From IMG/VR virus record IMGVR_UViG_3300028595_000004, positions 1-40,911 of that record: DNA of 40,911 nucleotides, one strand, 5' to 3'. The notes under the pieces were generated by a model. It saw only the letters and a program-made list of their open reading frames with translations. It did no database searches and was not told where the DNA came from. How positions within the stretch are numbered: the first letter of the stretch is position 1; each line of letters starts with the position of its first letter. The position numbers were made by a program, and so were the translations under genes. Of the stretch, positions 1 through 40,911 are shown one piece after another. Origin of the DNA: a virus.

Positions 1-127
1 CAAACGGATTGGAAAGTTCTGCGCCCGGTTATCATCCGGCCGATTTGGGCGGATTCCCTGCATCATCAGCGCAAGGTTTTTCTTTTCATCCGACGCCTCG
101 GCCGCATCCGCTGTTTCACGGCTGCGC
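1..127. repeat. Left copy of 127-bp terminal direct repeat
   Basis: The first 127 bases are identical to the last 127 (40785-40911). Both copies lie inside the portal gene and keep its frame. This shows that the window is a complete circular or circularly permuted molecule of about 40,784 bp. A length of exactly 127 matches a common assembler k-mer, so the repeat is probably an assembly overlap rather than a physical phage terminus. Confidence 0.95.
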
Positions 128-2409: not shown

Positions 2410-2531
2410 GTACCGCAGGCGTCCCGCCTGCCTTGTCCCACGTACCGCAGGCGTCCCGCCTGCCTTGTCCCACGTACCGCAGGCGTCCCGCCTGCCTTGT
2501 CCCACGTACCGCAGGCGTCCCGCCTGCCTTG
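2410..2531. repeat. Four tandem copies of GCAGGCG-TCC-CGCCTGC palindromic element
   Basis: A 32-bp unit (taccgcaggcgtcccgcctg plus a spacer ccttgtcccacg) begins at 2411, 2443, 2475 and 2507, with the last unit diverging after its core. Each core is a perfect 7-bp inverted repeat with a 3-nt loop. The array lies directly 5' of the small pre-portal gene, so every late transcript carries four GC-rich hairpins here. The same core recurs at 9293, 10461-10614, 11294 and, degenerate, at 7133. Confidence 0.95.
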
Positions 2532-8320: not shown

Positions 8321-10330
8321 TCAATAACACCCCCCGCCCCGGTTGCGCTGCGTCGCCTCCCGGTCGATGTAGCGGCAATTCTTCAGAAAAAACATCCGCA
8401 GGCAGTCAATAAAATCCTTGCAGGCCCCATGCTGACCGTCGCTGCCGGTATAAATACTCATCGCAAAAAGAAGGTTTTTGCAGTCCTTGGAAATCCGCAG
8501 CGTCGGACGGTTGAAGAAATCGACCGGCTTGTCCGGATCGTACTCCAGCGCGTCATTAATCATCTGCACACCGTCATCAATGCTATGTCGCGACCCACTC
8601 TCAGACTCATAGAACGTCAATCCGATCTCATCAAACTGATCAAACAAATTAATCTGCCCGCCCTCATTCACCCCCTTGGTATTCCCGAAACGGGCATCGA
8701 GCAGACGCATCTCAACCTTTTCCTTAGCCGGACCGTTTTCTTTCCAGGCTTTAATCTGCTCGTTGGTCGCTCGCGCCTCGTAGCATTCCCATCCCTCAAT
8801 CCGCGCAATCTCCTTCTTGTGACTGCACAGCCCCCAGCCAAAATTCTTCTGCGCGGGACCCTTCTTGCCGTCCAGTTTTTTCAGGTTGTCACTCGGCTCC
8901 GCCCACGGACCGACAAACCCCTGCCCCGGAATAGCCTCCACCTGGTTCGGCCACTCGCGGTACACATAAACCTCTTCCGGCGTACAGCGTACCCACAGCA
9001 TGGCCGTGTTGCGCTCCTTCGACGGGTCGGCAATCATATAGTTTGTTCCCTTCTCGGGAATCGCATCCGGCTCAATGCTGTGCACATCCTCATCGAACAA
9101 AGGAAATAGTCCGGCCTGCCGACGACGGGTAAATCCGTAGTAGCGCTCAAAAATCTTATCTTCGCTCAACCCCTCTACCTTGCGCCAGATCAGTTCGGGA
9201 TCGAGAAAGCGGTTGTCATCGCTGTAGAAACAAAGTGCCCCGTTGCGCGGATTCGCGCTCTGGATCACCCTTGGCGTCAGCGCAAACTCCCGTACCGCAG
9301 GCGTCCCGCCTGCCTCGCCAACAACATGCTCCACCGAAAGCCGCCGCGCATTCGCCGCCGTAGCAACCACACTCTTTACAGAGTCCACCTGCTGCCCGTC
9401 CCGGAACCACTCCAGACAATCCTCATGCTGAAACTGCAAATCTCTTGCCGGCGGCCGGTTATCGCGCGGAACAAGAAACGCCTTGCCATAGCGAAGCACC
9501 TTGCCGCCGTCCAGAAAGCGCGCGACCGTCGAAGTTGTTCCCTCAATCGGCGTAAACCCTAGCACCCCGACCGAATTAAAACGCGCCAAACGAAAGTCAA
9601 GCGTATCGATCAGCGAGCGCGGGGCCAGCTCGTCCGCACAGTACCCAACGCATCGGTTCAGCCCCTTGCGGTCGCCCGGCTCCGTACCCTCCGGCTTGGA
9701 ATCCTTCTGCTCGTAGTAGCGGAACAGGCACTCCGAGCGGTTCGGCAGAATAAAACTGTTGTCCGAAAAGCCTGTCTTCTGCTTCCAGGCAATGTAGGTG
9801 CTCTCCGTCCGCTGCGCAACGCGGTGCTCCGGCGGCAAAAACTCATACATACGCGCCTGGTGAACCTCGCGGCTCAGATCGCTGTCCGTGTGGTACATCT
9901 GAATCTTCACATCCGGGAACTGATACAAGCTTCGCATCGCCAGATAGCACTCCAAATGCGTCTTCGCCGACCCGTTGCCCCCCAGCACACAAACCACATC
10001 CCACGGCGCAGCCATCCCGAACGCCTTGCGCACCATCTCACCGAACGCCGCTCCGCCCTCGATCAGCTCCCCGTTTTCCTTCGGAAGCTGCGGAGGAATC
10101 ATCCAATCCAGACCCAGTACCGCCATACACACAAACCAAATACTCGGACGGTATCCATAGCGCAGCGGATCGGTCTGCTCGTTATAAATCTTCCGCTCCC
10201 GCGCCGTAAACAGCCAGTCGAACTTTTCGCGCAGCTGCTGCTCCGTCGGGCTTGCAATCCCGTCTGCAACGCACAGACGCCGCGCGTCATCAATCGTCAC
10301 CTCCGGCCAGATTGGATGTTTGGTTGCCAT
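8321..10330 (-). CDS. terL: Terminase large subunit
   Basis: The ATPase-nuclease motor that cuts and packages DNA, 669 aa. Walker A is GGNGSAKT (117-124) and Walker B CVGYCADE (227-234), with Glu234 as the likely catalytic base. The nuclease half starts at MIADPSKERNTAM with Asp435 as a probable metal ligand; DARFGN and the HSIDDG acidic segment follow. Residues 340-346 (AGGTPAV) are the exact translation of one palindromic host-style element (9293-9314), placed in a linker between ATPase and nuclease domains. The ATP motifs are intact, so the insertion looks tolerated. The gene is 3.2 kb from the scaffold gene in transcription order, with several accessory genes between. No adjacent small subunit is evident. 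Confidence 0.92.
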   Translation of the reverse strand: MATKHPIWPEVTIDDARRLCVADGIASPTEQQLREKFDWLFTARERKIYNEQTDPLRYGYRPSIWFVCMAVLGLDWMIPPQLPKENGELIEGGAAFGEMVRKAFGMAAPWDVVCVLGGNGSAKTHLECYLAMRSLYQFPDVKIQMYHTDSDLSREVHQARMYEFLPPEHRVAQRTESTYIAWKQKTGFSDNSFILPNRSECLFRYYEQKDSKPEGTEPGDRKGLNRCVGYCADELAPRSLIDTLDFRLARFNSVGVLGFTPIEGTTSTVARFLDGGKVLRYGKAFLVPRDNRPPARDLQFQHEDCLEWFRDGQQVDSVKSVVATAANARRLSVEHVVGEAGGTPAVREFALTPRVIQSANPRNGALCFYSDDNRFLDPELIWRKVEGLSEDKIFERYYGFTRRRQAGLFPLFDEDVHSIEPDAIPEKGTNYMIADPSKERNTAMLWVRCTPEEVYVYREWPNQVEAIPGQGFVGPWAEPSDNLKKLDGKKGPAQKNFGWGLCSHKKEIARIEGWECYEARATNEQIKAWKENGPAKEKVEMRLLDARFGNTKGVNEGGQINLFDQFDEIGLTFYESESGSRHSIDDGVQMINDALEYDPDKPVDFFNRPTLRISKDCKNLLFAMSIYTGSDGQHGACKDFIDCLRMFFLKNCRYIDREATQRNRGGGCY
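9293..9314. repeat. Single palindromic element inside terL
   Basis: The 22-bp core taccgcaggcgtcccgcctg(cc) is identical to the units of the tandem arrays at 2410 and 10459. It lies in frame in the terminase gene and encodes AGGTPAV. Confidence 0.95.
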
Positions 10331-10436: not shown

Positions 10437-11273
10437 TTAATCGTCCGCCGTATCTTCCTGTACCGCAGGCGTCCCGCCTGCCCCGGCTTCCTGTACCGCA
10501 GGCGTCCCGCCTGCCCCGGCTTCCTGTACCGCAGGCGTCCCGCCTGCCCCGGCTTCCTGTACCGCAGGCGTCCCGCCTGCCCCGGCTTCCTGTACCGCAG
10601 GCGTCCCGCCTGCCTCTCCATCAGAACCAGCACTCGTCCCTTCAGCACCGGCAGTCGCGCGTTCGTTCGTCCGCCCATGCAACGACGACAACGCATAATC
10701 AACACCCTCCAGCGCCTGTTCGTTTTCCAAACACACAAAGCCTCCGCTCTGGAAACCTTCCAGGCGGTCCTTCACGATTGCCAGCAGGCTTTCGCAACTG
10801 ATCCCGTTGAGCCCAGCTTCCAGCACCGGACCCTTCTGGAACTGAATTGCTACCGCCATCTTGCCGCCATCCGGCAGTTGAATCAGAATGGCATACTGAT
10901 GACACGCCCCGCCGGGGCCAGGCTCATCGCAGGCCAGCACTTCAATCTGCTCATCCATCCCCTCGCCGCAGCGGTGCGCCGTAATTTCGCGCGCGGTTTC
11001 CTCATCGACCACCAGCGACGGAATGTTTTTAAACCCAGGCGTTGGTTCATCGTCTTTCGGCTTCGGAGCGGACTTCTCCTTCAGCACTTTCTCAAACCCT
11101 TTGCCTTCATCGTCTTCATCACGGAACACAATACGCTCCGCCAGTGCGACCTCTTTGCTATGCCGAATCATATTCAGCTGAACATCCTCATTCGCCACAC
11201 CGGCCGCCGCCGACACCAGATCATCCCGCGTAACAACAACTGCCCCAACCTCATTCTTTACTTCTTCACTCAT
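10437..11273 (-). CDS. Protein with Acb2/Tad1-like hairpin domain and AGGTPAV repeats
   Basis: A 278-aa protein. Residues about 1-110 are charged and poorly conserved in appearance. Residues about 145-215 match a pattern I associate with the Acb2/Tad1 hairpin domain of phage proteins that sequester cyclic-nucleotide defence signals: VAIQFQKGPVLEAGLNGISC, LLAIVKDRLEGFQSGGF, CLENEQALEGVDYAL, HGRTNERATAGAEGT. The C-terminal 55 residues are five 11-residue repeats (QEAGAGGTPAV) made by the tandem palindromic array. AAGGAAG precedes the ATG. The domain call is from motif memory and needs a profile search. If right, the protein would counter CBASS or Thoeris; otherwise it is a conserved phage protein of unknown role. 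Confidence 0.6.
   Translation of the reverse strand: MSEEVKNEVGAVVVTRDDLVSAAAGVANEDVQLNMIRHSKEVALAERIVFRDEDDEGKGFEKVLKEKSAPKPKDDEPTPGFKNIPSLVVDEETAREITAHRCGEGMDEQIEVLACDEPGPGGACHQYAILIQLPDGGKMAVAIQFQKGPVLEAGLNGISCESLLAIVKDRLEGFQSGGFVCLENEQALEGVDYALSSLHGRTNERATAGAEGTSAGSDGEAGGTPAVQEAGAGGTPAVQEAGAGGTPAVQEAGAGGTPAVQEAGAGGTPAVQEDTADD
10459..10615. repeat. Five tandem 33-bp palindromic elements, coding
   Basis: The core taccgcaggcgtcccgcctg begins at 10461, 10494, 10527, 10560 and 10593, a period of exactly 33 bp (11 codons). It therefore encodes perfect protein repeats at the end of the sponge-like gene. Units are nearly identical, indicating recent expansion. Confidence 0.95.
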
Positions 11274-11427
11274 CGTCTTCCTTTCTATTTACGTACCGCA
11301 GGCGTCCCGCCTGCCCAGTTTTCCACCCATTGAAAATTAAAACCCGCACCCACCGCCACATCCCGACCAGCCAGCAAACCACCAGCGGAACAACCCAGCC
11401 CTCATTTCCACCGCACATCTGGCACAT
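11266..11427 (-). CDS. Small membrane protein with CxxC, partly encoded by palindromic element
   Basis: A 53-aa frame starting with the ATG that overlaps the stop of the ASCH-like gene (TGATG at 11427) and ending 8 bp inside the next gene. It begins MCQMCGGNEG, continues with a membrane helix (WVVPLVVCWLVGMWRW) and ends GQAGRLRYVNRKEDDE. GQAGRLRY is the translation of the palindromic element at 11294-11315. The translational coupling on both sides favours a real gene. Function unknown. Confidence 0.5.
   Translation of the reverse strand: MCQMCGGNEGWVVPLVVCWLVGMWRWVRVLIFNGWKTGQAGRLRYVNRKEDDE
11294..11315. repeat. Single palindromic element
   Basis: One taccgcaggcgtcccgcctg core lies 21 bp upstream of the sponge-like gene start, in frame in the small membrane protein gene. 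A degenerate TTCCA/TTGAA palindrome follows at about 11320-11337. Confidence 0.9.
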
Positions 11428-22328: not shown

Positions 22329-22430
22329 TTCAACCAGTAGACCCCTGCAAACATTGGCTAAAGTGCATACCAACCAATTAAAACAAGGGCATGACCACAG
22401 ACAAAACTCTACCGCTCCAACTTCTGCACA

Positions 22431-22450
22431 CCGACACAGACCGACACAGA
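22431..22450 (+). repeat. Direct repeat CCGACACAGA x2 upstream of int
   Basis: Two adjacent copies of ccgacacaga, plus a partial third (ccgacc), lie between attP and the int promoter. They are candidates for integrase arm-type or excisionase binding sites. Confidence 0.5.
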
Positions 22451-22456
22451 CCGACC

Positions 22457-22485
22457 TTGACACGCTCCCAAAGTGTGCATAATGT
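22457..22485 (+). promoter_or_regulatory. Integrase promoter
   Basis: TTGACA (22457-22462), 17-bp spacer, TAATGT (22480-22485). This is close to the sigma70 consensus. AGGAG (22498-22502) precedes the ATG at 22508 by 5 nt, giving a very short leader. Confidence 0.75.
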
Positions 22486-22507
22486 GTGCAGTCAAACAGG
22501 AGAGTCT

Positions 22508-23629
22508 ATGAAAAACGTTGAGGGCCATCGTAATTTAAAGGTGCGCGAGGGAAAATATTACTGGCGGGAAACGATTAAAGGCCGGAAATATTTTGAGTCG
22601 CTGCATGTGCCATATACCGGCCGGAAGGCCGAGGAAAAGGAAGCTGTTGCCCGGATGCAGGAAAAGCAGAAGCTGGCCCGGACAGAGCAGTTTGACCGCC
22701 TGGACGATACCCGCGTGAAGGTGGGTTATGCCACGATCGGAGCAATCATCAAACAGTACGAAGCAGCCGCTGCCGCCTACGGTCTGGCTGACAGTTCCCG
22801 CAAGAAGGCTGTGAACTCTCTTAAATTCATCATCACCACCGCAACCGGCCACTATTCCGATGATCTATCATCGACTGTTCTGACCGGCAAACTGGTACGG
22901 GACTACCGCGACGCCGTGCTGGCCGGAAGGACGGATCTTGATACAGCCAGGCGCACGATCGCATCTACGCTCCGCAACGCCCGCGCAGTGTTTGCCGGGT
23001 GGACGCATGACGAATATCGGAAATTGAAACTACCGGACCTGACCGACTTTAAAAAGGGAGCAGCCAACCGAACGCATATCAAGCAGTACGTGCTGCCGCC
23101 ACAGGATCTAATCGACCGCACCATTAAAGCGGGCCGCCAGCTCCTGCAGGACGGCAAGACCGGCCTTGCCGCCATGTTCCTGCTGACATACGACTGCGCA
23201 CTTCGCAGCACAGAGGCACAACTGGCCACGCGCGACTGGATCGGCGACGGCTGGATCGAAGTACGCGCCGGCAAGACATGGAACGCGCGACGCGTCGGAC
23301 GGAAAATCCCGCTGAATAAAGAGACGCAGGCGGAACTCGAAAGCCTGCTGCGCCAGAACGAGGAATACATTCTGCCCGGCAAACACATGACGGAACGGAA
23401 AACGCTGGCAGAGCGTGAATTCAGCGAATGGATGCGCGGGCTAGGCTGGACCCGCGAACAGTACCCCAAAACGGCGCATGAATTGCGGAAGCTCAAAGGC
23501 AGCAGATGGTACACCGACCAAGGCCCGCACATCGCGCAGACGCTTCTCGGGCACGTCTCGGTAGCCACAACCTGCAAACTGTACGCAACGCTGGATAAAC
23601 TTCCCGAGGCGCTGCCGCGGGAAAGCTAA
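22508..23629 (+). CDS. int: Tyrosine-type site-specific integrase
   Basis: A 373-aa recombinase for integration and excision. The start is the ATG at 22508 with AGGAG; an in-frame ATG at 22391 would cover the promoter. The N-terminal part is basic (RNLKVREGKYYWRETIKGRK). Catalytic residues are R233 (CALRSTEAQLA), a Lys in the RAGKTWNARR hairpin, H324-x-x-R327 (HELRK), H349 (LLGHVS) and Y359 (KLYATL). All are intact. It stops tail to tail with the giant late gene, the two stop codons overlapping. The neighbouring tRNA fragment is its probable attachment site. Confidence 0.93.
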   Translation: MKNVEGHRNLKVREGKYYWRETIKGRKYFESLHVPYTGRKAEEKEAVARMQEKQKLARTEQFDRLDDTRVKVGYATIGAIIKQYEAAAAAYGLADSSRKKAVNSLKFIITTATGHYSDDLSSTVLTGKLVRDYRDAVLAGRTDLDTARRTIASTLRNARAVFAGWTHDEYRKLKLPDLTDFKKGAANRTHIKQYVLPPQDLIDRTIKAGRQLLQDGKTGLAAMFLLTYDCALRSTEAQLATRDWIGDGWIEVRAGKTWNARRVGRKIPLNKETQAELESLLRQNEEYILPGKHMTERKTLAEREFSEWMRGLGWTREQYPKTAHELRKLKGSRWYTDQGPHIAQTLLGHVSVATTCKLYATLDKLPEALPRES

Positions 23630-26600
23630 CGCCTAAACGATGCGTCTATGTATTGCATCAGGGCTTCGCGCTCCTCCTTGGATCGGGCGGAGTCAATGAG
23701 CTGATCTTCCGGCCGCATGAATTTACGGGCGGCGCGGGCGTCAAAGTTTCTTTCCACATAGCCTTGCGCTCGCGGATCCTGCTCGATGGCCCGCAGCAGC
23801 TCCGAATCCACACTGCCGCGCTCCACCTGCTGATTGATTGCGGTCCGGGCATTCAAGCGGCTTCTGGACTGCTCACGCCGCAGCGGCTCAACCACCTTTT
23901 GGCGCAGGAAATCGGCACGTCCGCGATTGGATACTTTCACCCACCGACCTAACGCATTACTGATCACTGGCAGCTGAAGGAACTTCTCCATACGTGTTTT
24001 CTGCGGATCATCACCGTAGTCATTCACATCGAAGCGGTGGACAATAGACCCACCGAATGCATTCCAGGTATATTTACCCATGGCGACCACGCTGCGGCCG
24101 TCTTGCGCCTGCATCAGATCATCATTCAGTAGCGGCCGACCACGGAACCAGTCATAGGGATTATTCCCGGAAAGATACTGACCCCACGCCAGCGGAACTT
24201 CCCAGACCGGGTTTCCGGATGGCAGCTGCCCGCCGGCATACGCCATAATCTGCCCGGGATTACCGGACTTATTCATAATTTTCCACGCAATCGCGCCCGG
24301 CATACGGAACTCTTCAGCCAGCGGCAGGCGGATATACATAACCTTTCCTTGCGCGCGGTCTTCCCATCCCAGCGGAATAATCGTGTAATTGGCTTTATCA
24401 TACTCCGGAATGTATGAATACATGGCTTCAAGGTCTTTCCCCCACTCTTCGCCATCGTCACCAAAACCGGCCTTCAGCGCCATAGTTAGCGCACCGGACG
24501 CGGCGGCCCACATCGCCACCTTTGGAGCAATGGAAAACTTAGCCGTATTCCAAGCCATAGCTGCCGGCGACTCCTTCGTGCGGTTAAATGTCGAACGAAC
24601 CGATTCCTTCCACGGGTTGTAGAACAGCGCCACAAAATCAACAAACGGATTAGCGGCCCCTTTCTGCAGGAAATTCGGAGATCCTGAATAATTGTGGATA
24701 ATGTACTGTTTCCGCCACTCCGGCATATCCTGAAAGTTCTTGTCCAGGTAGAGACGACCCGCACGTTTCACCGTGCGCTCAAACACCTGTCCCAACTCCA
24801 TCCACTTACTGGCGGCGCCTACCACCAGGCGGATCGCCCGCTGGTCCGCCCGCAGATTTTCCGGATTCTGCCAGTAGCGCCGCATCAGCCGGTCAATAGC
24901 CGTCCCGTCATCTTTGTGAGCCAGCGGATTCGCAACCGTAATCCAATCCTGTTTGCTCAGGCTTTCCAGCGCGCCGACATTCGGCTTTCCGAACACAGAC
25001 GACGCGGAATCCGCAAACGCCCGCCCGAAATTACGCCAGAACTGCGGACCGCCAAACGGCAGCCGCGAAGTGCGCGGCATCTTCCCCTGGAACGCCATCA
25101 CATCGCGCACAAAAGCCACCGGCCAGAAACCGTAGTTCAACTGGGTGAACAGATTCTTCACGCCCCGGCTCGGTGCGGACAGCATCTTAATCAGCATTGT
25201 GTTTTCCACGCTGTTTCCGCGGTCGAACGCCTCGGCAAACACCTTCGGCACATACCATCCCTCAGACTTGCCGTCGCGCATCACAACAATGGTTCCGACT
25301 CGGTCGCCTTCCTTCACCACCACTTCACGGAAGCGGCCGTTCCAGCGCATATCAGCCTGTTTAATCTCATTCGGGAAATGCTGGCGCATCATATCCACCA
25401 TTTCCGTCTTAGCCACATTGCGCCGCGCGGCATCCATTAAAGAAATATCCTTCATTACCGTCGCCGCTGCCGGATCCTGAATCCGGTTGAGTGTACCGAT
25501 CTGCCGGTAAATCTTTGCGCCCACATTCGAGCCATAGGTGCGCGCCAGCATCTCATCAATCGAGCCCTCCGCGCCGGCGGACTGATCCTTTGCCACCGCA
25601 AACGTCGCGTAATACAGATTATCCTCCATCTTCTGCAAAAGCTCCGGCGTCACCAGGCCGGACTGTTTCACCATCTCCAGCACCGTATCGGTGCGGATCT
25701 GCCAAAGCTGTTCATGTGCCGCCTGCAAAGCAGACCAGCGCTGCGGTCCCAGCTCGGCGGACAGCTCATCCATGCGCTGCTTCGAACTCTTTGGCGTGAA
25801 CCCCAACGGGTTGGCCATATCAAAACGCTCATTCATCACGCGCTGGTGGAACATATATTCTGACAGATTCTCCCACGTCAGATCATTGGAATGCAGAGCC
25901 TTCATCACCTGCTGCGAAACGCGGCCCATGTAATACTCATGGCCGGTCGCACGGTAGAGATAGTTTTCAATCGCGCCCTCCACGCGCCCGCGCTCATCCC
26001 CTTTGAGCTTCGCCTGATTCATCCGGGCAAACACCGGACCAAACACCCGATCGAACGAAAAGCGAACCGAATCCGCCCGCTCGCGGCCCGTCGTCTTTCC
26101 TCCGGCCTCATACAAACCAAACGCCTTCTGGTCGGAATCCTGAAACGCCCTATGCAGCCGCCTCACGCGCTCCTTATGAATCTGCCCGCTGCGGATGTCC
26201 TCCTGAATCTGATTATAAATCTTCAGGGCGGCCGGACGTGCTTCAAGCCCCTCATGCAGCATCTGGAAAAACTTAGGAGCCCGCTTCGCCAGCGCCTGCG
26301 GATTATTCATAAACACAGAAAACGAATCGGCATACATCTCTGCCGGCTTCTTGTAATAATCCGGCATCGTTTCCGACCCGTTCCACCAGGCAATCAACGG
26401 CTCCAGCTCGGCAACAATCTGCGCCTTCGTAACCAGACCGCGCGCCGCGGCCTCCTTCGAAACCATGCTCTGATACCCATTAGACACCCGCTTGTTCCAT
26501 GCCTTCAGCTCCGCCGGACGCTTCTTGCTCGGACGCGGACCGGCGGCAAACTGCGCCTCCTTGCGCAGTCGCTTGCGGTCGTTATCGTCCAGCAGCGGCT

Positions 26601-29600
26601 CATCCGTCGTCAACCGCTCCGAAATCATCGACTTTGTGTACTTATTCAGCGCCGCGATATGCCCCAGAATATTCCCGCGCGAAAAGGTGTAATCCGGCAG
26701 GAAATCAATCCAGTGGCCGATCTCATGGGCCAGCGTCTTGCGCGCCCAGACCGGATCCTCCTGCTTGCGCTTCTCAAACTCCTGCTCATAAAGAAACTGA
26801 TACCGCTCATCAGCCACCTTGGCCGTATCCGCATCGTCAAGATTTTCCTGCTGCTGAACCGTCTTGGCATACTCGTTGGCCTGCTCGCGCAGCGCGCGGC
26901 GCACATCGCGGGGAACCAGCTCAAACGTCTCCGCCTTCAGCTCAATGCGCGGATCGAGCGGATCGCCGTAAAACGCGCCGGCGGCACGGCCTTTCAGCAG
27001 ACGCAACTGCTCCTTCACGCGCGGCAACTTCCCGCCTCCCAGCAGCTCCGCCACATGTACCAGCTCCGGCATTTCAAACGGAAGAGACGAATGCAACGGA
27101 TCATCCGCAGGCACCCCGGCAGCACCCAGCCCGCCTTCACCCTTCCCGCCGCCATCAGCCATCGCCTCCGCCGCTGCGTTTCCAGACATTGGAACGGATT
27201 GTTCCGAACCTTGGAAATCCTGCGCGACGGGCGGCTCATCAAAAATAGACGGCGGAACCTCCTGCTGTGCTTCGGCCATCTTTTCCTCCGGTGCGGGCGG
27301 GACTGACTGCTTTTCCATAAAAGAAAGCGGATCAACCTCCTCAACAGCAACGGTCAAATCCGGCTCAAAATAAATTTTTACTTTATGTTTTTCTGTACCG
27401 GTTATCTGACCTCCGGAGTGCATCATTCCATCATATCCAGCAGAAGCCATTGCATCGAGCAATTCGTCAAAAGTTTCCTGTACCTCATATGTGCTAATCA
27501 TTTGGGAAACCGACTCATCTCGAATCGCATCGTAAAGATCTGCTACGGTTTCGATGATATTACCGTACAAGTTTTGCTCTCCAAATTTTGGAAAGTTATC
27601 CGGGATTCTTTGATTCATGGTTTTGGCCAACTGAGGATCAACGGCCGCATTCATGTCCAAAATATTAAGGTTTTCCTTTTCCGTAACCTTATAGATTACG
27701 GGGGTTCCTCCTCGTCCTTTCTTTGAATAGCCAACTGAAACATCGGCAGCATCTGTTGTATAGAATCCGCCGCCGTAAATATTTTGTTCCGATCCGTACC
27801 GACCAATCAGGCCGGTTAATTTGGAAGATGTTCCATGATATTGTACTCCTTCTCCGCGCGTGTTACGAATCGGAATCCGGCCAGCTAAAACATCCCGCCG
27901 GTTCGCATCGCTGAAATCTGGAACATTTTCTTTCAACCCTCGGAAATCCTGCGCGACGGGCGGCTCATCAAAAATAGACGGCGGAACATTCTGCTGTGCT
28001 TCGGCCTGTTCGTCGAGACTCTGCAAATAATACACATCATCCACATCGGCGGCGTCCGGTTCGGCCTGCAAATCGGCTTCCGTAATTCCGCGCGCATCGA
28101 GCACCTGTTTCCAAACCTCGGAAAACTCTGTGCGCAGATTGGCGGGCGGCAGGATGCCGTCGGTCACATACTCGTTAAAACCCTCCCAGGTCAACCGCTC
28201 ATCCTCGGCGGCTTCCCGGTCGGCTTCGGTCTGGCCGGACTGCTGACGCTCCTCCAGCTGCATTTCAACGCGCTCCAGGTGCGCGCGCAGATCGTCGGTC
28301 GTCATGTTGAACCGGTCGGCCCACTCATCCAGGCTCTGCGCCGCTGCATCATCCGCTTTCGCCCAGTAGCGGCGCGGAATAATCCCCCACTCCTCAGAAT
28401 GGCTCTGGAAGGCTCCGCCTGTTTTCTCGCGCCGGATCCCGCGCGCCAGAATTTCGGCGGCAATCTCATCACCGGAAAGCACCTCATCGGCAATCTGCTG
28501 CTGCTTCGCCTTAAACTCCTTCAGCTCGGCGGACTGCCGCTTCTCTTCGGCGGTCATCGCTTTTCGGGGCGTTGGCTTCTTCACCTTACGGCCCTTGGTG
28601 ATAATTTGCTCAATCAACTTTGTTCGCGTAACGGGCTGGTCCGATCCCTTCTCAAAGAACTGACCGTTGCGCAGCACATAGCGCTGCTTCTGAAACGTTA
28701 CTTCCCGGCCTTCTTCGTAGCGTCCGGCTGGCGGCGCATCTTCAATCGGGCCGCGCGGTCCAGCATCATTCCCAGCTCCGGGTTCCTGCGCCCCGTCTTC
28801 ACGGCCTGCTGGCGGCTCAAGGTTGCTTTGTTCATTGGGTTTCTCCTGATTATTAATTTCAAACGTCGGCAGATTCTGCGGTGTCGGGTCAACCGGATTG
28901 CCAAAGGCGTCAACCGCCGCCGGTGCGTCTGACCCCTGACCTCCGACCCCTGACCCCTGACCTCCGGCTTCCGGCGAAAGCACCTCGGAACGGAACGCCC
29001 GCCGCGCCACCCCTGCCGCGCCGCCGCCGGCAAGCGTAATCACACCCACCGCCGGAATTGACTGCACACCACTCTCAATAAAAGCAGTTTTCAGCTTTTC
29101 AGGATCAAGGCTTTTCACCAGATCAAGAATCGACTGCGTATCACCCTTCGATGCCGCATCAAGCATCTCCCCGGTACCTTCTTCAACTGCGCCCTGTGCG
29201 CCCTCTTCAACCAGAGACTCCAACGCCCAGCGGATTGCAAACGCCGTCCCGCTGCGCCCGATCCGCTGCAGTATTGTCGGATTGGCCGCCACCTTACGGA
29301 AAAGAAAGTTTGCCACCTGCTGATCCACCCCGGAACCCAGCGACTTCATGCCCGGAATTGCGCTTACCGCAAACTCAATCGCCGCATACGGTGCAGCCAT
29401 CGCCTGAGATATTTTGTTATATTCCGAAAGCTGCTCCGGTGTCAGCGCATCCAGATCCTTATCGCGAAGAAACGACCGCAAAAACTGACCAGCCCCCTGC
29501 TGCTGCCAGTACGTGCCGACCGCAGCCTTGCCGGTAAACCCGCCAACAAAAGGAATTGAAGAGCCCGCCGCACCAACCAACGCGCTTTCCACCATCGGCA

Positions 29601-30279
29601 CGCCGCTGGCTGCCGCACCCTTCACACCTTTTTCCAGCAGATTGGCGTCATCCAGGCTCAACCGGTCGCCAACTTTACCGAGAACGCTACGGTCTTCCTG
29701 AACAGCCGAGCGTAGCTTCTCCATATCCCCGCCGATGGCCGCAGCCGAAACCCGGTTATTCAGCGAAGCCGACCAGCCGCCCATCTTCCAGTGGTCATCA
29801 ATCGACCCGTCAATCTTTCCCTCTTCAACCGCCTTACGGAACGGCTCAGCCCGCATGTAATCCGCACCGACCTCCGTGCTATCCGTCAAACCATCCCACC
29901 AGCGACCAAGATTAAACTGCGCCCGGTCAATAAACTTCTGCACCGCATTCCGGTCGTCCGCCCTCCAGACTCCGAACCGGTCTTCATCCACTGCAACAGG
30001 CTCTGCACTTCCACCCAAAGGAAACTCCAGCAGGGACGGGCCGCGCTCCTGCCCCTCAAAGCTTCTCGGAATGCCAAGCGAATCATTGCCGTATGCTGGC
30101 GGAATGCCAAGGTCCTGCGAACCCTGCTGCGGCGCAGCTTCCGGGGCGGGGAGCATACTCCAAGAATCCTCCTGCTCCAATGCGGCGAATGGATCCATCC
30201 CGCCCGGGGCATCCATCACAGCGGCTTCAGTTCCATCCCCCCAGGGAGTTTCTATTTTAAGTGCTTCAAACGGATCCAT
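23626..30279 (-). CDS. Giant polyvalent virion protein with ART-like and metallopeptidase domains
   Basis: A 2217-aa protein, typical in size and place of internal proteins ejected into the host with the DNA. GAGGTCAGC precedes the ATG. Residues about 805-990 look like an ADP-ribosyltransferase: YHGTSSK with H815, then GGGFYTTDAADVSVGYS. This part is bounded by duplicated VPPSIFDEPPVAQDF segments and is AT-richer than the rest. Residues about 1180-1320 form a zinc peptidase: LAHEIGHWIDF (H1185-E-x-x-H1189) and a later AEMYADSFS Glu. Residues about 1600-2110 match large polyvalent protein (LPD38-like) sequence: NLFTQLNYGFWPVAFVRDVM, PLAEEFRMPGAIAW. No lytic enzyme or polymerase motif was seen. 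Substrates unknown; the enzyme calls are by motif. Confidence 0.82.
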   Translation of the reverse strand: MDPFEALKIETPWGDGTEAAVMDAPGGMDPFAALEQEDSWSMLPAPEAAPQQGSQDLGIPPAYGNDSLGIPRSFEGQERGPSLLEFPLGGSAEPVAVDEDRFGVWRADDRNAVQKFIDRAQFNLGRWWDGLTDSTEVGADYMRAEPFRKAVEEGKIDGSIDDHWKMGGWSASLNNRVSAAAIGGDMEKLRSAVQEDRSVLGKVGDRLSLDDANLLEKGVKGAAASGVPMVESALVGAAGSSIPFVGGFTGKAAVGTYWQQQGAGQFLRSFLRDKDLDALTPEQLSEYNKISQAMAAPYAAIEFAVSAIPGMKSLGSGVDQQVANFLFRKVAANPTILQRIGRSGTAFAIRWALESLVEEGAQGAVEEGTGEMLDAASKGDTQSILDLVKSLDPEKLKTAFIESGVQSIPAVGVITLAGGGAAGVARRAFRSEVLSPEAGGQGSGVGGQGSDAPAAVDAFGNPVDPTPQNLPTFEINNQEKPNEQSNLEPPAGREDGAQEPGAGNDAGPRGPIEDAPPAGRYEEGREVTFQKQRYVLRNGQFFEKGSDQPVTRTKLIEQIITKGRKVKKPTPRKAMTAEEKRQSAELKEFKAKQQQIADEVLSGDEIAAEILARGIRREKTGGAFQSHSEEWGIIPRRYWAKADDAAAQSLDEWADRFNMTTDDLRAHLERVEMQLEERQQSGQTEADREAAEDERLTWEGFNEYVTDGILPPANLRTEFSEVWKQVLDARGITEADLQAEPDAADVDDVYYLQSLDEQAEAQQNVPPSIFDEPPVAQDFRGLKENVPDFSDANRRDVLAGRIPIRNTRGEGVQYHGTSSKLTGLIGRYGSEQNIYGGGFYTTDAADVSVGYSKKGRGGTPVIYKVTEKENLNILDMNAAVDPQLAKTMNQRIPDNFPKFGEQNLYGNIIETVADLYDAIRDESVSQMISTYEVQETFDELLDAMASAGYDGMMHSGGQITGTEKHKVKIYFEPDLTVAVEEVDPLSFMEKQSVPPAPEEKMAEAQQEVPPSIFDEPPVAQDFQGSEQSVPMSGNAAAEAMADGGGKGEGGLGAAGVPADDPLHSSLPFEMPELVHVAELLGGGKLPRVKEQLRLLKGRAAGAFYGDPLDPRIELKAETFELVPRDVRRALREQANEYAKTVQQQENLDDADTAKVADERYQFLYEQEFEKRKQEDPVWARKTLAHEIGHWIDFLPDYTFSRGNILGHIAALNKYTKSMISERLTTDEPLLDDNDRKRLRKEAQFAAGPRPSKKRPAELKAWNKRVSNGYQSMVSKEAAARGLVTKAQIVAELEPLIAWWNGSETMPDYYKKPAEMYADSFSVFMNNPQALAKRAPKFFQMLHEGLEARPAALKIYNQIQEDIRSGQIHKERVRRLHRAFQDSDQKAFGLYEAGGKTTGRERADSVRFSFDRVFGPVFARMNQAKLKGDERGRVEGAIENYLYRATGHEYYMGRVSQQVMKALHSNDLTWENLSEYMFHQRVMNERFDMANPLGFTPKSSKQRMDELSAELGPQRWSALQAAHEQLWQIRTDTVLEMVKQSGLVTPELLQKMEDNLYYATFAVAKDQSAGAEGSIDEMLARTYGSNVGAKIYRQIGTLNRIQDPAAATVMKDISLMDAARRNVAKTEMVDMMRQHFPNEIKQADMRWNGRFREVVVKEGDRVGTIVVMRDGKSEGWYVPKVFAEAFDRGNSVENTMLIKMLSAPSRGVKNLFTQLNYGFWPVAFVRDVMAFQGKMPRTSRLPFGGPQFWRNFGRAFADSASSVFGKPNVGALESLSKQDWITVANPLAHKDDGTAIDRLMRRYWQNPENLRADQRAIRLVVGAASKWMELGQVFERTVKRAGRLYLDKNFQDMPEWRKQYIIHNYSGSPNFLQKGAANPFVDFVALFYNPWKESVRSTFNRTKESPAAMAWNTAKFSIAPKVAMWAAASGALTMALKAGFGDDGEEWGKDLEAMYSYIPEYDKANYTIIPLGWEDRAQGKVMYIRLPLAEEFRMPGAIAWKIMNKSGNPGQIMAYAGGQLPSGNPVWEVPLAWGQYLSGNNPYDWFRGRPLLNDDLMQAQDGRSVVAMGKYTWNAFGGSIVHRFDVNDYGDDPQKTRMEKFLQLPVISNALGRWVKVSNRGRADFLRQKVVEPLRREQSRSRLNARTAINQQVERGSVDSELLRAIEQDPRAQGYVERNFDARAARKFMRPEDQLIDSARSKEEREALMQYIDASFRR
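27213..27277. repeat. 65-bp direct repeat, copy 1 (C-terminal side of ART cassette)
   Basis: Identical in 63 of 65 positions to 27942-28006 and exactly 729 bp (243 codons) away. It encodes a segment reading AEAQQEVPPSIFDEPPVAQD followed by FQG. The pair brackets the ART-like segment, so the cassette keeps the reading frame. Confidence 0.95.
27942..28006. repeat. 65-bp direct repeat, copy 2 (N-terminal side of ART cassette)
   Basis: Second copy of the repeat, encoding AEAQQNVPPSIFDEPPVAQD then FRG. Recombination between the two would remove the whole 243-codon ART-like segment cleanly. Confidence 0.95.
28929..28967. repeat. GACCCCTGACCTCC spacer tract inside giant gene
   Basis: Tandem related words (ctgacccctgacctcc) encode a Gly/Gln/Ser-rich linker (GGQGSGVGGQGSD). 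They resemble the tract at 14428-14461 and host-style intergenic text-like repeats. Confidence 0.65.
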
Positions 30280-30286
30280 GCTGACC

Positions 30287-31459
30287 TCACTTCACATATT
30301 CAAGATTATACTTCTGAATGCCGATTAACACCAGAGAAGGATCCACCTCCTGGGTTTTCCCCGTCTTGGGATCCCGCAGCGTCACCTTGCCGCCGGCCTT
30401 TTCAATCTTCTTCAGCGACTCCGTAATCTTACCTTCCCATGTGGACTTATTAAAGCGCCAATCCCAGCCCGGTTTCTTATTCTTCGGGTCCTCCATGCCT
30501 TTTAACGCCTCCGACAGCTCTTTTCGGGCAGTGGCGACTGTAGCCTGATCCTCTATAAGCGTCTGGTTTGTGTCTGCTTCAGGAGCATCAATCTTCACCA
30601 GCCCGGCCTTCACGCGCAAATCCTGCTTGCGCCGCTCATCAATCACGCTCTGAGCCACCTTGTCGCCGGGAGCGTATTCAATTCCGGCCTGCTGCGCCCA
30701 GGCCACATAGGGATCTGCGGCCGGCTCTTCAGCTGGCTCTTCCCCCGGATTCCCGGCGCGCCGGCGTTGGTCTGCCAGCGCCCTCGCGGCATCGGTGCGG
30801 GCGTTGTCATACTCCTCATCCCGCTTGCGGCCCGCGCGTTCCGCATCCAGGGCCTCATTACCGAGCTTCTTCTGCTCCAGCCACTCCGTCAGCGGCATGT
30901 TCTGCTGACTCTCAAAACCCTGCATCACGTTATAGCGGTTTCCTCCAACGCGCTCTCCGTAATAATTCTCCTTCTCCGCCGTCCGGGCAGGCATCCCCAA
31001 CCCGGCCGCCAGCTGCCGCCCGGCGGAGGAAACCGTACTCAACCGGTCAATGCGGTTTGTGCTCCCTGCCGCCTCCAGCAGATTTAACTTCTGCTCATTG
31101 CTCATTGCGTCTCCCTGCAGATCAATATATCGCAGCAGATCACTCTTACGCTGCGCATCCGCCCGATCCCCTACCCCGGACAACCGGCGGGTTTGCCGGT
31201 CAATATCGCTCAGCAGCGCGGACCGCGCATCCTCCACGCGCTCCCTTACATCCGGGCCAATGCGCTCCCGCGGCCCTTCACGATCCAGATCCTTCTGCAA
31301 GAAATCTTCCTGGCTCAACCCGCTCTCACGGAAACTGCGCGACGCGCCCGGTCCGTAAATGCGCGGCTGTGACTGCGTGGACAGCTCATCGACCGGGACA
31401 GGTGCAGGCAGCACCAGCGGCTGCTCTTCAATTTCTTCGCCTGTAATGGGGTCAATCAT
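30287..31459 (-). CDS. Virion-type helical protein, 390 aa
   Basis: The ATG at 31459 overlaps the sulfotransferase stop (TAATG) and follows AAGGAGCAG; a longer frame has no site. The protein is charged, rich in Ala/Arg/Glu and helical, with a Pro-rich head (MIDPITGEEIEEQPLVLPAP) and coiled-coil stretches (RAGRKRDEEYDNARTDAARA). It lies 7 bp before the giant protein gene, where podoviruses place companion ejection proteins. Assigned by position and composition only. Confidence 0.65.
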   Translation of the reverse strand: MIDPITGEEIEEQPLVLPAPVPVDELSTQSQPRIYGPGASRSFRESGLSQEDFLQKDLDREGPRERIGPDVRERVEDARSALLSDIDRQTRRLSGVGDRADAQRKSDLLRYIDLQGDAMSNEQKLNLLEAAGSTNRIDRLSTVSSAGRQLAAGLGMPARTAEKENYYGERVGGNRYNVMQGFESQQNMPLTEWLEQKKLGNEALDAERAGRKRDEEYDNARTDAARALADQRRRAGNPGEEPAEEPAADPYVAWAQQAGIEYAPGDKVAQSVIDERRKQDLRVKAGLVKIDAPEADTNQTLIEDQATVATARKELSEALKGMEDPKNKKPGWDWRFNKSTWEGKITESLKKIEKAGGKVTLRDPKTGKTQEVDPSLVLIGIQKYNLEYVK

Positions 31460-32016
31460 TATTCTGCTCCTTCCTTGGCCATTCCGGCCCACATTTTAAA
31501 ATCATCTGCGTAAATCTCCCGCACCCGTTCTTCCTGGAAACAACTTAGCGACGGCTTCGCATGCCTGCTTACATTCAGCCGCCTGATCGGTGCTGTAATC
31601 CCGGCCGCCGCCGCCATCGCCTCCAGCTGGTCCGGGAATCGAAAGAGCTTGATCCCGTCTTTTTCTGCCGGAACCTGTAAGCCGAACGGGCGCCTTTTCC
31701 AAAGCGAGTATCTTCCGGCCTGCAGCTCCAGCTCAGCCAGCACATCGTCAACGGAGCAATACTCTCTGGCCCATAAGCATGCGGAAACGAATCGCTCAAC
31801 CGGGTCCCTGATAACACCGACGAGCAAAGAGCACTCATCGACAACCGCAGATTCCATGTAGCGCCTTGGGCTCTTCATACCGTTACTGAAATGTTCGTTA
31901 AACTCATCCGGATAAAACGTCTCGAGAATAGCGGTGCATATCGATGTGGAACCGGCCCTGTGATTGTCAAGGACTCCGACCGATCCGCATTTAAAATATG
32001 CATCATTCCTGATCAT
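31459..32016 (-). CDS. Sulfotransferase-like protein
   Basis: A 185-aa protein with the marks of PAPS-dependent sulfotransferases of the carbohydrate type. The 5'-phosphosulfate loop is HRAGSTSICTAI (19-30). The 3'-phosphate motif is VGVIRDPVERFVSACLW (66-82), with Arg70 and Ser78. The end has LNVSRHAKPSL and VREIYADDFKMW, like the family's C-terminus. It is short for the family but both nucleotide motifs are present. It has no signal peptide, so it acts in the cytoplasm, on a glycan precursor or a phage protein. It is coupled by 1-bp overlaps to both neighbours inside the late tail operon. Its AT content is similar to neighbouring tail genes. Confidence 0.72.
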   Translation of the reverse strand: MIRNDAYFKCGSVGVLDNHRAGSTSICTAILETFYPDEFNEHFSNGMKSPRRYMESAVVDECSLLVGVIRDPVERFVSACLWAREYCSVDDVLAELELQAGRYSLWKRRPFGLQVPAEKDGIKLFRFPDQLEAMAAAAGITAPIRRLNVSRHAKPSLSCFQEERVREIYADDFKMWAGMAKEGAE

Positions 32017-37500: not shown

Positions 37501-39201
37501 CTAATTGCTATGCCTCACAGACTCGATGGAATACAGCCCTGAAATCTCGGCGGAAGATAGCTCCCCATTGATTATAAACACATCGTCCAATTTTGATTTG
37601 CAGGTCTTCACACTGCCATCTTCCGAGCATCCAACATAGAGATCGAATTCTGTCGAGTACTGAACAGTCGGAGCGGCGGTCATAGATCCGTTTTTGACGT
37701 TGACTCCGTTTAGGTACGCACTGTAAGTGCCAGCATCAAAGCGGAGCACAACCGCTAGATGAGTCCAAACATTAGTTGCCTCGGTCCATCCGGTCACGGT
37801 CTGGTTTGCCATGATATTATTTTGAGCACCAGCCTGCCAACTTAGCATAGTTAGCTTGTAGTCGCCTGTTCCTGGACCATAGTACATTTTCCACGATCCA
37901 TTATCTGTGCCATATTCTCCGTATGTCAGTATTGGATTGTACACTCCGGTCGCAGACGGTGCGGTTGGGCTGATCCAAAAACCAATGGTAAACGTTCCGT
38001 TGGTTGGTGTTGACAATGTTGCATCATTGTAAATAACTTTTTTGCCGGTATTATTCTCCGACGGATACTCCAAATGTGCCCCCGTCTGCCACAGCCTATT
38101 GTATTTAACGTGCTGTACGTCCGAGGATTTAAAAAGCAGAGATTTTGGGGATTTATCCAGTAAGTAGTCGTTGTCAAACGTAGCCCAAAACAAGGCGTTT
38201 GTCCATTGCGGTAACTGCCGATAGGTCTCAATGGAATCAACCGGATCGGTTCTGTTTTGCAGATCTCCTCGCGGTGAGATTCCCAACTCCCGCTTGGCCT
38301 TTTCAACAAGCCCATAACTGCTGTAGTGGATATTGTCCGAGTTGATGTCCAAATCATCACAGTCAATCAACCTGATATTTGGCAAGGTTTCCGCCACCTG
38401 ATACGTTTGTTGCTGGACAGAGTAGCCTGCAATCGTCCCATTGTTGCGTACAAGCGGAATTGTAAACTTAACGGTTGGTTCACCCAGATCAGATCGCATC
38501 GACTGAATCATGTTCGTCATGTTTTCGTAAAACGCGTTGTCCTCCCACCCGATGGTATTAAATTTGTCTCTTTCGCCGCCCGTGAATACGATCTCGGTCA
38601 ATTTTGTGTTGTAACCAAGAGCTTCCAGATCGGCTACCATGTTTGTGTATTGGCTGATTACTCCGTCGTATCCAACGGTATTTGTTGCGCCGGGCGCCCA
38701 AAAGTCATAGACCCCTTTTGCTCCCCACATATATTTGCATATTGCCGCCTTTGGATATATCGCATCCATTACAGGCCCGACAATCATCTCGGTTCCCCAA
38801 TAGTTAGTCGATGCCTGCTGTAAAGTTGTTAACGCGCCGCTGGATATTTCCCGACTGGAAAATAAAATATTCGTGTTCGTTAGCGGTATCCCAAAATCAA
38901 GCAAAGCCTGCGATGACTGAGGGGACCCATCGTTGCTTTGACCAAACTGCAAGCGAATGTAGCAGGTTTTACCCTGATAGCGGATATCAGCTGCGCCCTG
39001 CGTGATTCCGTTCGTTGGGTTAAACCAGGCGTCGATTTGCCCCTGCAAGTCAACCCCCTCCACTTGATACCGGTTCACAAACCGCAGCGCATCCCCCGCA
39101 GTAACCGGACCCCTTACAGAGATCCATTTGCTGCCAAACGGCAGTGCCCATGCAGACACCGCCAACCAATAAAACAAAACAAAACAAAACAGCTTTTTCA
39201 T
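37501..39201 (-). CDS. Secreted SASA-type carbohydrate esterase with LamG-like domain
   Basis: A 566-aa protein with a signal peptide (residues 1-19, MKKLFCFVLFYWLAVSAWA). Residues about 78-310 have the SGNH/SASA (sialate O-acetylesterase) plan: FGQSN with nucleophile Ser89, FTGGERD in place of the GESD block, and SDNIH with Asp289 and His292. Residues about 335-560 are a ConA/LamG jelly-roll (FTIGFWISPTAP, WTHLAVVLRFDAGTYSAYLN, KLDDVFIINGELSSAEISGL). It would remove acetyl groups from polysaccharides. ATGA overlap ties it to the late operon. The signal peptide is odd for a tail enzyme; it may be exported, or acquired from the host. Start codon well supported. Confidence 0.75.
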   Translation of the reverse strand: MKKLFCFVLFYWLAVSAWALPFGSKWISVRGPVTAGDALRFVNRYQVEGVDLQGQIDAWFNPTNGITQGAADIRYQGKTCYIRLQFGQSNDGSPQSSQALLDFGIPLTNTNILFSSREISSGALTTLQQASTNYWGTEMIVGPVMDAIYPKAAICKYMWGAKGVYDFWAPGATNTVGYDGVISQYTNMVADLEALGYNTKLTEIVFTGGERDKFNTIGWEDNAFYENMTNMIQSMRSDLGEPTVKFTIPLVRNNGTIAGYSVQQQTYQVAETLPNIRLIDCDDLDINSDNIHYSSYGLVEKAKRELGISPRGDLQNRTDPVDSIETYRQLPQWTNALFWATFDNDYLLDKSPKSLLFKSSDVQHVKYNRLWQTGAHLEYPSENNTGKKVIYNDATLSTPTNGTFTIGFWISPTAPSATGVYNPILTYGEYGTDNGSWKMYYGPGTGDYKLTMLSWQAGAQNNIMANQTVTGWTEATNVWTHLAVVLRFDAGTYSAYLNGVNVKNGSMTAAPTVQYSTEFDLYVGCSEDGSVKTCKSKLDDVFIINGELSSAEISGLYSIESVRHSN

Positions 39202-40563: not shown

Positions 40564-40911
40564 TGAGCAGCCTCCTGACGTACGGGCTGCCCTTGTGGCT
40601 GCCCAATCGCCATCAAATCCGTCTCCGTAAATCCAAGCCGACCAGTCTGCGCGTTTTCACGCTGCTGAGTTTGGAACCCGAGATATTCCAACTGCTCCTG
40701 AATAATCGCCGCCGCAGCCGGACTGATTTCCGGAAACGCACCGGGATTAGCCTGCCGCAGCTGCAGCTCCTGCTGGAGCACCTGCAAACGGATTGGAAAG
40801 TTCTGCGCCCGGTTATCATCCGGCCGATTTGGGCGGATTCCCTGCATCATCAGCGCAAGGTTTTTCTTTTCATCCGACGCCTCGGCCGCATCCGCTGTTT
40901 CACGGCTGCGC
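40560..40911 (-). CDS. Portal protein, C-terminal part (continued from position 1)
   Basis: The last 75 codons of the portal gene (40784-40560) plus the 127-bp repeat that duplicates its codons 624-666. The tail is Gln-rich (LQVLQQELQLRQANPGAFPE) and ends QPQGQPVRQEAAQ. In the circular molecule it joins directly to base 1 without frame change. The stop overlaps the tail adaptor start. Confidence 0.88.
   Translation of the reverse strand, partial: RSRETADAAEASDEKKNLALMMQGIRPNRPDDNRAQNFPIRLQVLQQELQLRQANPGAFPEISPAAAAIIQEQLEYLGFQTQQRENAQTGRLGFTETDLMAIGQPQGQPVRQEAAQ
40785..40911. repeat. Right copy of 127-bp terminal direct repeat
   Basis: Identical to 1-127. See the left copy. Circularising by removing one copy restores an unbroken 740-codon portal gene. 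Confidence 0.95.

What the first reader, a model, noticed from the sequence alone, without database searches (positions are those of the whole stretch)
27213..28006. Removable ADP-ribosyltransferase cassette bounded by 65-bp direct repeats inside a giant ejected protein
A segment of 243 codons in the 2217-aa gene is bracketed by 65-bp direct repeats (63/65 identical), 729 bp apart and in frame. The bracketed part carries a YHGTS...GGGFYTTDAADVS...GYS pattern (ART-like). It is clearly AT-richer: the line 27541-27600 is about 37% GC against about 65% for 27001-27060. This looks like a recently acquired toxin or effector domain inserted by duplication of a linker, and it could be lost by recombination. 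If packaged proteins swap enzyme modules this way, it is a route for effector turnover in phages.
Basis: partly seen in the sequence, partly recalled or inferred. Interest (0 to 1): 0.85.

Follow-up and report, generated by a model that had tools for sequence, protein, structure and literature searches.

The report
Inserted ADP-ribosyltransferase module between duplicated linkers
A phage of bacteria related to Verrucomicrobiota has gained an ADP-ribosylating enzyme domain inside its giant, probably injected, protein, and the 65-bp linker sequence copied on both sides of the domain looks like the fresh scar of that insertion at a spot where relatives carry other domains or none.

Summary
In the 2217-codon gene (23626-30279, minus strand) two 65-bp direct repeats, 63/65 identical and 729 bp apart in frame, bracket a 664-bp AT-rich segment (44.6% GC; rest of the gene 57.7%, sd 1.9). 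The segment encodes an ADP-ribosyltransferase (ART) fold: the predicted structure best matches a domain of the cyanophage A4 pre-ejectosome (Z 12.2), then known ARTs, and H815/Y840/D950 match the H-Y-D active site published for ARTs of phage 'polyvalent proteins'. Ten clear relatives of the C-terminal part lack an ART in this slot; they carry PBECR3, ddrB-ParB, RadC, LPD3 or LPD13, or no recognised domain, and none has the long repeat. Several relatives keep a linker-like motif 50-60 residues before the conserved module, where repeat copy 2 sits. The repeat holds no synonymous difference, and the contig closes with a 127-bp overlap, so assembly error is unlikely. Best reading: an ART module was recently inserted at the linker of a polyvalent protein, duplicating the linker. 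Polyvalent proteins, their ARTs and their mosaicism are known; the in-frame linker scar at a slot of domain turnover is the new detail. Loss by recombination, injection and ART activity are inferred, not shown.

The parts
23626..30279 (-). 2217-aa polyvalent protein gene, last gene of the late operon
   Evidence: relatives
27942..28006 (-). linker repeat copy 1 (around aa 759-779, AEAQQNVPPSIFDEPPVAQDF), before the ART module
27213..27277 (-). linker repeat copy 2 (around aa 1002-1022, AEAQQEVPPSIFDEPPVAQDF), after the ART module; sits 59 aa before the conserved module, as the linker-like motif of several relatives does
27278..27941 (-). AT-rich inserted segment (664 bp, 44.6% GC) between the repeats
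27295..27849 (-). predicted ART fold core (aa 811-995)
   Evidence: AlphaFold2 pLDDT 68.7, pTM 0.66; PDB matches; PF18760 E 0.014, PF13151 E 3.8e-5; a profile built partly from this sequence matches aa 793-1007
27835..27837 (-). His815, predicted first active-site residue (YHG)
   Evidence: invariant in 46 sequences
27760..27762 (-). Tyr840, predicted second active-site residue
   Evidence: invariant in the five sequences
27430..27432 (-). Asp950, predicted third active-site residue (GYDG)
   Evidence: invariant in 46 sequences
23629..27078 (-). conserved C-terminal part (aa 1068-2217) shared by all clear relatives
26713..26727 (-). HEIGH zincin-like metallopeptidase motif (aa 1185-1189)
   Evidence: H, E, H invariant
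22391..23629 (+). tyrosine integrase, convergent with and overlapping the end of the giant gene
   Evidence: PF00589 E 4.1e-10; same layout in L010 and L126
1..127 (.). terminal direct repeat, identical to 40785-40911: the contig closes into a 40784-bp circle

Best explanation
The gene encodes a phage polyvalent protein: a long, modular protein made with the late genes and probably packaged and ejected with the DNA. Just upstream of its conserved, metallopeptidase-containing C-terminal part lies a slot, bordered by a short proline-rich linker, at which different phages carry different effector domains. In this phage (or a recent ancestor) an AT-rich DNA segment coding for an H-Y-D type ADP-ribosyltransferase was inserted in frame at that linker by recombination, and the linker was copied in the process, so that one copy now lies on each side. 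Shown: the repeat, the frame, the distinct composition, the predicted ART fold and triad, the absence of the ART at the slot in relatives and the other domains there. Inferred: insertion here rather than loss in all relatives, recency, ejection, that the ART modifies host proteins early in infection, and that the repeats can recombine and delete the module.
For: Repeat and composition. ART: DUF3990 E 3.8e-5 and ART-PolyVal E 0.014 directly; nearest sequences are free-standing ~199-aa genes of jumbo phages, 24-26% identical in BLAST, two of which (XaC1, CBB) are clear ART-PolyVal members (8e-14, 6.3e-13); the model's top PDB match is the cyanophage A4 pre-ejectosome protein (Foldseek 1.1e-5; Z 12.2 over 161 residues), then ParT, RES toxins, diphtheria toxin, tankyrase. 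Slot turnover: PBECR3 in L014 (3.5e-21), ddrB-ParB in L017 (2.2e-21), RadC in L018 (3.2e-22), LPD3 in L126 (3.9e-18) and LPD13 in L127 (1.3e-25), the last starting right after a linker VPSLFKEPV; no convincing domain in L010-L013 or L016; an ART profile finds nothing in L010-L018, L126, L127. A linker-like motif lies within 320 aa of the module in 7 of 11 proteins against 0.3 expected in shuffles, at most 4, 51-61 aa before the module in L011, L013 and L016, as for copy 2 here (alignment).
Against: No relative closer than about 43% over the C-terminal part was found, so the empty state is inferred across a large distance and the linker alignments are short and uncertain. No donor with the same linker was found in IMG/VR. 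The model has middling confidence (pLDDT 68.7), and the direct Pfam scores are below the curated cut-offs. A few other stretches of this phage genome have equally low GC, so composition alone is no proof of foreign origin. Ejection has no direct evidence; the C-terminal part matches no solved ejection protein by profile.
Confidence: 0.74

Rival explanations
1. The repeated linker is kept by selection as a functional peptide pair, for example as processing sites for the protein's own zincin metallopeptidase or as unfolding segments for passage through the tail, and is not a recombination scar.
For: The linker-like motif recurs next to the slot in relatives; other ART modules are flanked by repeated linkers whose peptide is conserved while the DNA has diverged, e.g. 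the GGPGSGNFGHxGRPGxVGGS copies in L085 and GDVEGHPFRGNQWTDGE in L094/L095. Zincin domains are proposed to process polyvalent proteins (PMC5512222).
Against: In this window the DNA itself is almost identical, with no synonymous difference in 21 codons, which selection on the peptide alone does not explain. It may act in addition to the insertion.
Confidence: 0.15
2. The arrangement arose by loss elsewhere: the ancestor had linker-ART-linker and all relatives lost the ART, while gene conversion kept the two linkers identical here.
For: Gene conversion between close repeats can erase synonymous differences (general knowledge). A distant relative, L129, has an ART, but some 500 aa further upstream.
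Against: Ten clear relatives lack it and several hold unrelated domains there; the AT-rich composition is confined to the insert within the gene.
Confidence: 0.08
3. Assembly artefact: two different phages were joined at a shared linker.
For: Metagenomic contig; repeats are a classical cause of chimaeras (general knowledge).
Against: The contig closes with an exact 127-bp terminal overlap, the usual mark of assembly with k=127, longer than the 65-bp repeat and its 46-bp exact core; the 2217-codon frame is intact and the two copies are not identical.
Confidence: 0.03

Closest known systems
Polyvalent proteins of phages and conjugative elements (Iyer et al. 2017, PMC5512222)
   Same: Giant multidomain protein with a zincin-like metallopeptidase motif and an H-Y-D ART, and mosaic swapping of PBECR, ddrB-ParB, RadC and LPD domains among relatives
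   Different: The window protein reaches no curated Pfam cut-off over its length; the near-identical in-frame linker repeat around the ART is not described in the passages read
ART-PolyVal family (Pfam PF18760), e.g. Pseudomonas phage F116 ORF60 and jumbo-phage genes XaC1_303, CBB_455
   Same: YHG motif, FYT tyrosine, GYDG aspartate; an ART inside a giant phage protein in F116 (E 1.1e-39)
   Different: The window ART is divergent (E 0.014), lacks the usual F..WFGDS..VVD lead-in, and is closest to free-standing genes, not to modules of giant proteins
ART-like domain in the cyanophage A4 pre-ejectosome (PDB 9k3a chain B)
   Same: Best structural match, Z 12.2 over 161 residues, inside a large virion protein
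   Different: A profile of the window's C-terminal part does not match that chain; 17% identity in the domain
MuF polymorphic toxins of temperate phages (PMC5576092)
   Same: Temperate phage, presumed injected protein with variable effector domains including ARTs and peptidases
   Different: No MuF domain was found here; the effector lies in the middle, not at the C-terminus

Membership tests
ART-PolyVal (PF18760) | Profile match at the curated cut-off (31.2 bits) | tested here: not met
   16.6 bits, E 0.014; its nearest homologues do meet it
ART-PolyVal (PF18760) | H-Y-D active site: His in strand 1, Tyr in strand 2, Asp in strand 5 | tested here: met
   H815, Y840, D950; H and D invariant in 46 aligned sequences; in the model H and Y lie in strands 33-37 and 59-62, and D just before strand 171-175
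ART superfamily | ART fold | tested here: met
   the clear matches are known ARTs; model of middling confidence
ART superfamily | NAD-dependent transferase activity | not testable with these tools
   needs biochemistry
Polyvalent proteins | Several unrelated effector domains combined in large proteins, mosaic among relatives | tested here: met
Polyvalent proteins | Delivered with the invading DNA | not testable with these tools
   indirect only: gene position
MuF polymorphic toxin | MuF domain | tested here: not met
   no MuF match in Pfam and PHROGs scans
Transposon or integron cassette insertion | Terminal inverted repeats and a transposase, or an attC-like site, with a short target duplication | tested here: inconclusive
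   the 664 bp between the repeats is one open frame coding for the ART, with no room for a transposase, and the 65-bp duplication is long; inverted repeats were not searched systematically

The most novel reading that the evidence does not exclude
Repeated linkers in phage polyvalent proteins act as recombination borders: a module next to a linker enters by homologous recombination at the resident linker, leaving linker-module-linker, and can leave the same way, giving an effector cassette exchange system inside single virion genes without any dedicated recombinase. The window would be a freshly caught step, and the multi-copy linker arrays in other phages (L085 with about seven copies, 16 ORFs with at least two GNFGHxGRPG linkers in a capped sample) older products.
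Probability: 0.27. Interest if true: 0.78.

Novelty: new variant of a known kind. Interest (0 to 1): 0.55.

Why it matters
Mosaicism of injected phage effector proteins is known, but how domains enter without breaking the frame is not. A near-identical linker scar around one module, at a slot where relatives carry five other recognised domains or none, offers a concrete and testable mechanism, and the same search (in-frame long direct repeats around effector domains) could be run over all phage genomes.

Tried and rejected
Whole-protein and ART-only searches of IMG/VR with the window sequence alone found one or no relative; alignments were needed. DNA search for the cassette in phage records: none. 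ART in plasmids: only weak hits. Other weak Pfam hits in the segment (KARI_C 0.0013, CesA chaperone) were set aside: short helical stretches, not supported by the fold search. Search for a donor with the same linker: 12 stretches, none in a polyvalent protein. Homology of the C-terminal part to solved ejection proteins: none by profile. Repeats in L024, L028, L030, L036 and L088 were first counted as similar cases but lie within duplicated ART units, a different process. PHROGs gave no names for the structural genes. Papers on the cyanophage A4 ejectosome or on linker duplication in phage domain insertion: none useful in the library.

Full report
OBSERVATION. It is not chance: extension score 60, against at most 17 in 100 codon shuffles of the gene, and at most 27 in the ten other large phage proteins examined in the same call. 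Inside the 65 bp there is one amino-acid change and no synonymous change; outside it, similarity decays over about 20 bp on the downstream side. The DNA between is AT-rich for this gene by about seven standard deviations of same-size windows, with GC3 near 0.42.

CONTEXT. The contig is a virus record. Its first and last 127 bp are identical, so it closes to a 40784-bp circle, and the portal-like frame (named by position and length only) reads across the join as 740 codons. It has an SU10-type major capsid protein, a C5 DNA methylase and a tyrosine integrase and a DnaB-like helicase by eye, so it looks temperate. The giant gene is the last of the late genes and meets the integrase tail to tail; L010 and L126 have the same layout. 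The Pelagibacter phage Baldr homologue follows the tail tube genes and precedes the fibre gene, the place of internal virion proteins in T7-like phages (general knowledge). Relatives of the C-terminal part lie in IMG/VR contigs, a Lentisphaerota MAG, 42% identical, and other genomes of the same GTDB phylum, so the host is probably in the Verrucomicrobiota group (inference).

THE MODULE. Pfam gives DUF3990 (3.8e-5) and ART-PolyVal (0.014), both below their cut-offs. The nearest sequences are free-standing genes of jumbo phages, and XaC1_303 and CBB_455 meet the ART-PolyVal cut-off. With 46 sequences AlphaFold2 gave pLDDT 68.7 and pTM 0.66. The best solved match is the cyanophage A4 pre-ejectosome protein (Z 12.2), followed by ParT, RES toxins, diphtheria toxin and tankyrase, all of ART fold. 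Iyer et al. (PMC5512222) describe the polyvalent-protein ART active site as His in strand 1, Tyr in strand 2, Asp in strand 5; the window has H815, Y840, D950.

THE SLOT. In L010-L018, L126 and L127 the C-terminal part is conserved (35-43% identity in alignment A6; lower for L017 and L127) but what precedes it is not: PBECR3 (L014), ddrB-ParB (L017), RadC (L018), LPD3 (L126), LPD13 (L127), or nothing convincingly recognised. None carries an ART by a profile of 46 ARTs. L015 and L016 are the same sequence over the gene, L002 and L011 are the same contig, so the set is ten distinct relatives. A loose linker motif ([PQSTG][SPGT][ILMVF]F[DEGKA][DEKAN]) occurs within 320 aa of the C-terminal part in 7 of 11 proteins; shuffled segments give 0.3 on average and 4 at most in 1000 trials (the motif was chosen after seeing the sequences, so the test is optimistic). 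In L011, L013 and L016 it stands 51, 61 and 60 aa before the module; in the window copy 2 stands 59 aa before it. The simplest history is one resident linker, and an insertion at it that copied it.

MECHANISM. Three ways to make linker-ART-linker are open: a single crossover between the resident linker and a circular or concatemeric donor carrying the ART next to the same linker; homologous joining at one end and illegitimate joining at the other; or prior tandem duplication of the linker followed by insertion between the copies. The linker copies have the composition of the host gene (about 58-59% GC), not of the insert. No donor with this linker was found, so I cannot choose. Deletion by recombination between the copies is plausible on general grounds and untested.

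GENERALITY. Among 80 IMG/VR loci with ART-PolyVal-like domains, repeated linkers outside the ART bracket single ART modules in L085 (about seven linker copies, roughly 80-90% identical in DNA while the peptide is nearly constant), L094/L095, and more weakly L072 and L089. In a capped sample of 80 loci with a GNFGHxGRPG linker, 16 ORFs hold two or more copies. So linker-bounded modules are not unique to the window, but its copies are the most alike in DNA among the linker-type cases seen.

STATUS. Known kind: polyvalent protein with an ART. New detail: a fresh linker scar at a slot of domain turnover. The flanks were not joined in any script; each was compared separately. Ejection, activity and removability remain to be tested.

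Noticed in passing
window 2415-2527, 9297-9313, 10465-10613, 11298-11314: Eleven exact copies of the palindrome GCAGGCGGGACGCCTGC (none expected by chance), in tandem runs of period 32-33 bp and one inside the terminase-like frame as an in-frame GGTPAV stretch. The 23-bp form occurs in 7 of 388 genomes of the relatives' phylum, up to 9 copies each, with no hit for the reversed control. It looks like a host REP-like repeat that has entered the phage.
   Followed up: partly
L085, ORF of 1628 aa: About seven copies of the linker GGPGSGNFGHxGRPGxVGGS divide the protein into separate modules, including two ARTs and a ParB-like domain; other IMG/VR ORFs hold two to five copies of this linker.
   Followed up: partly
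L024, L028, L030, L036, L088: Tandem duplication of whole ART units within polyvalent proteins, with long in-frame DNA repeats.
   Followed up: no
window 1-127 and 40785-40911: Exact 127-bp terminal repeat: the record is a complete 40784-bp circle, apparently assembled with k=127.
   Followed up: yes
window 37501-39201: Probable tail fibre or spike with a SASA carbohydrate esterase and a Laminin-G-like domain.
   Followed up: no
window 31459-32016: 185-aa frame between tail genes and the giant gene with sulfotransferase-like motifs (HRAGSTS, RDPVERFVSA) by eye; no Pfam match. L002 has other cargo-like genes in a similar place.
   Followed up: no
PDB 9k3a chain B, residues 1116-1605: The cyanophage A4 pre-ejectosome protein seems to hold an ART-fold domain, though the molecule is named only 'Tail protein'.
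   Followed up: partly
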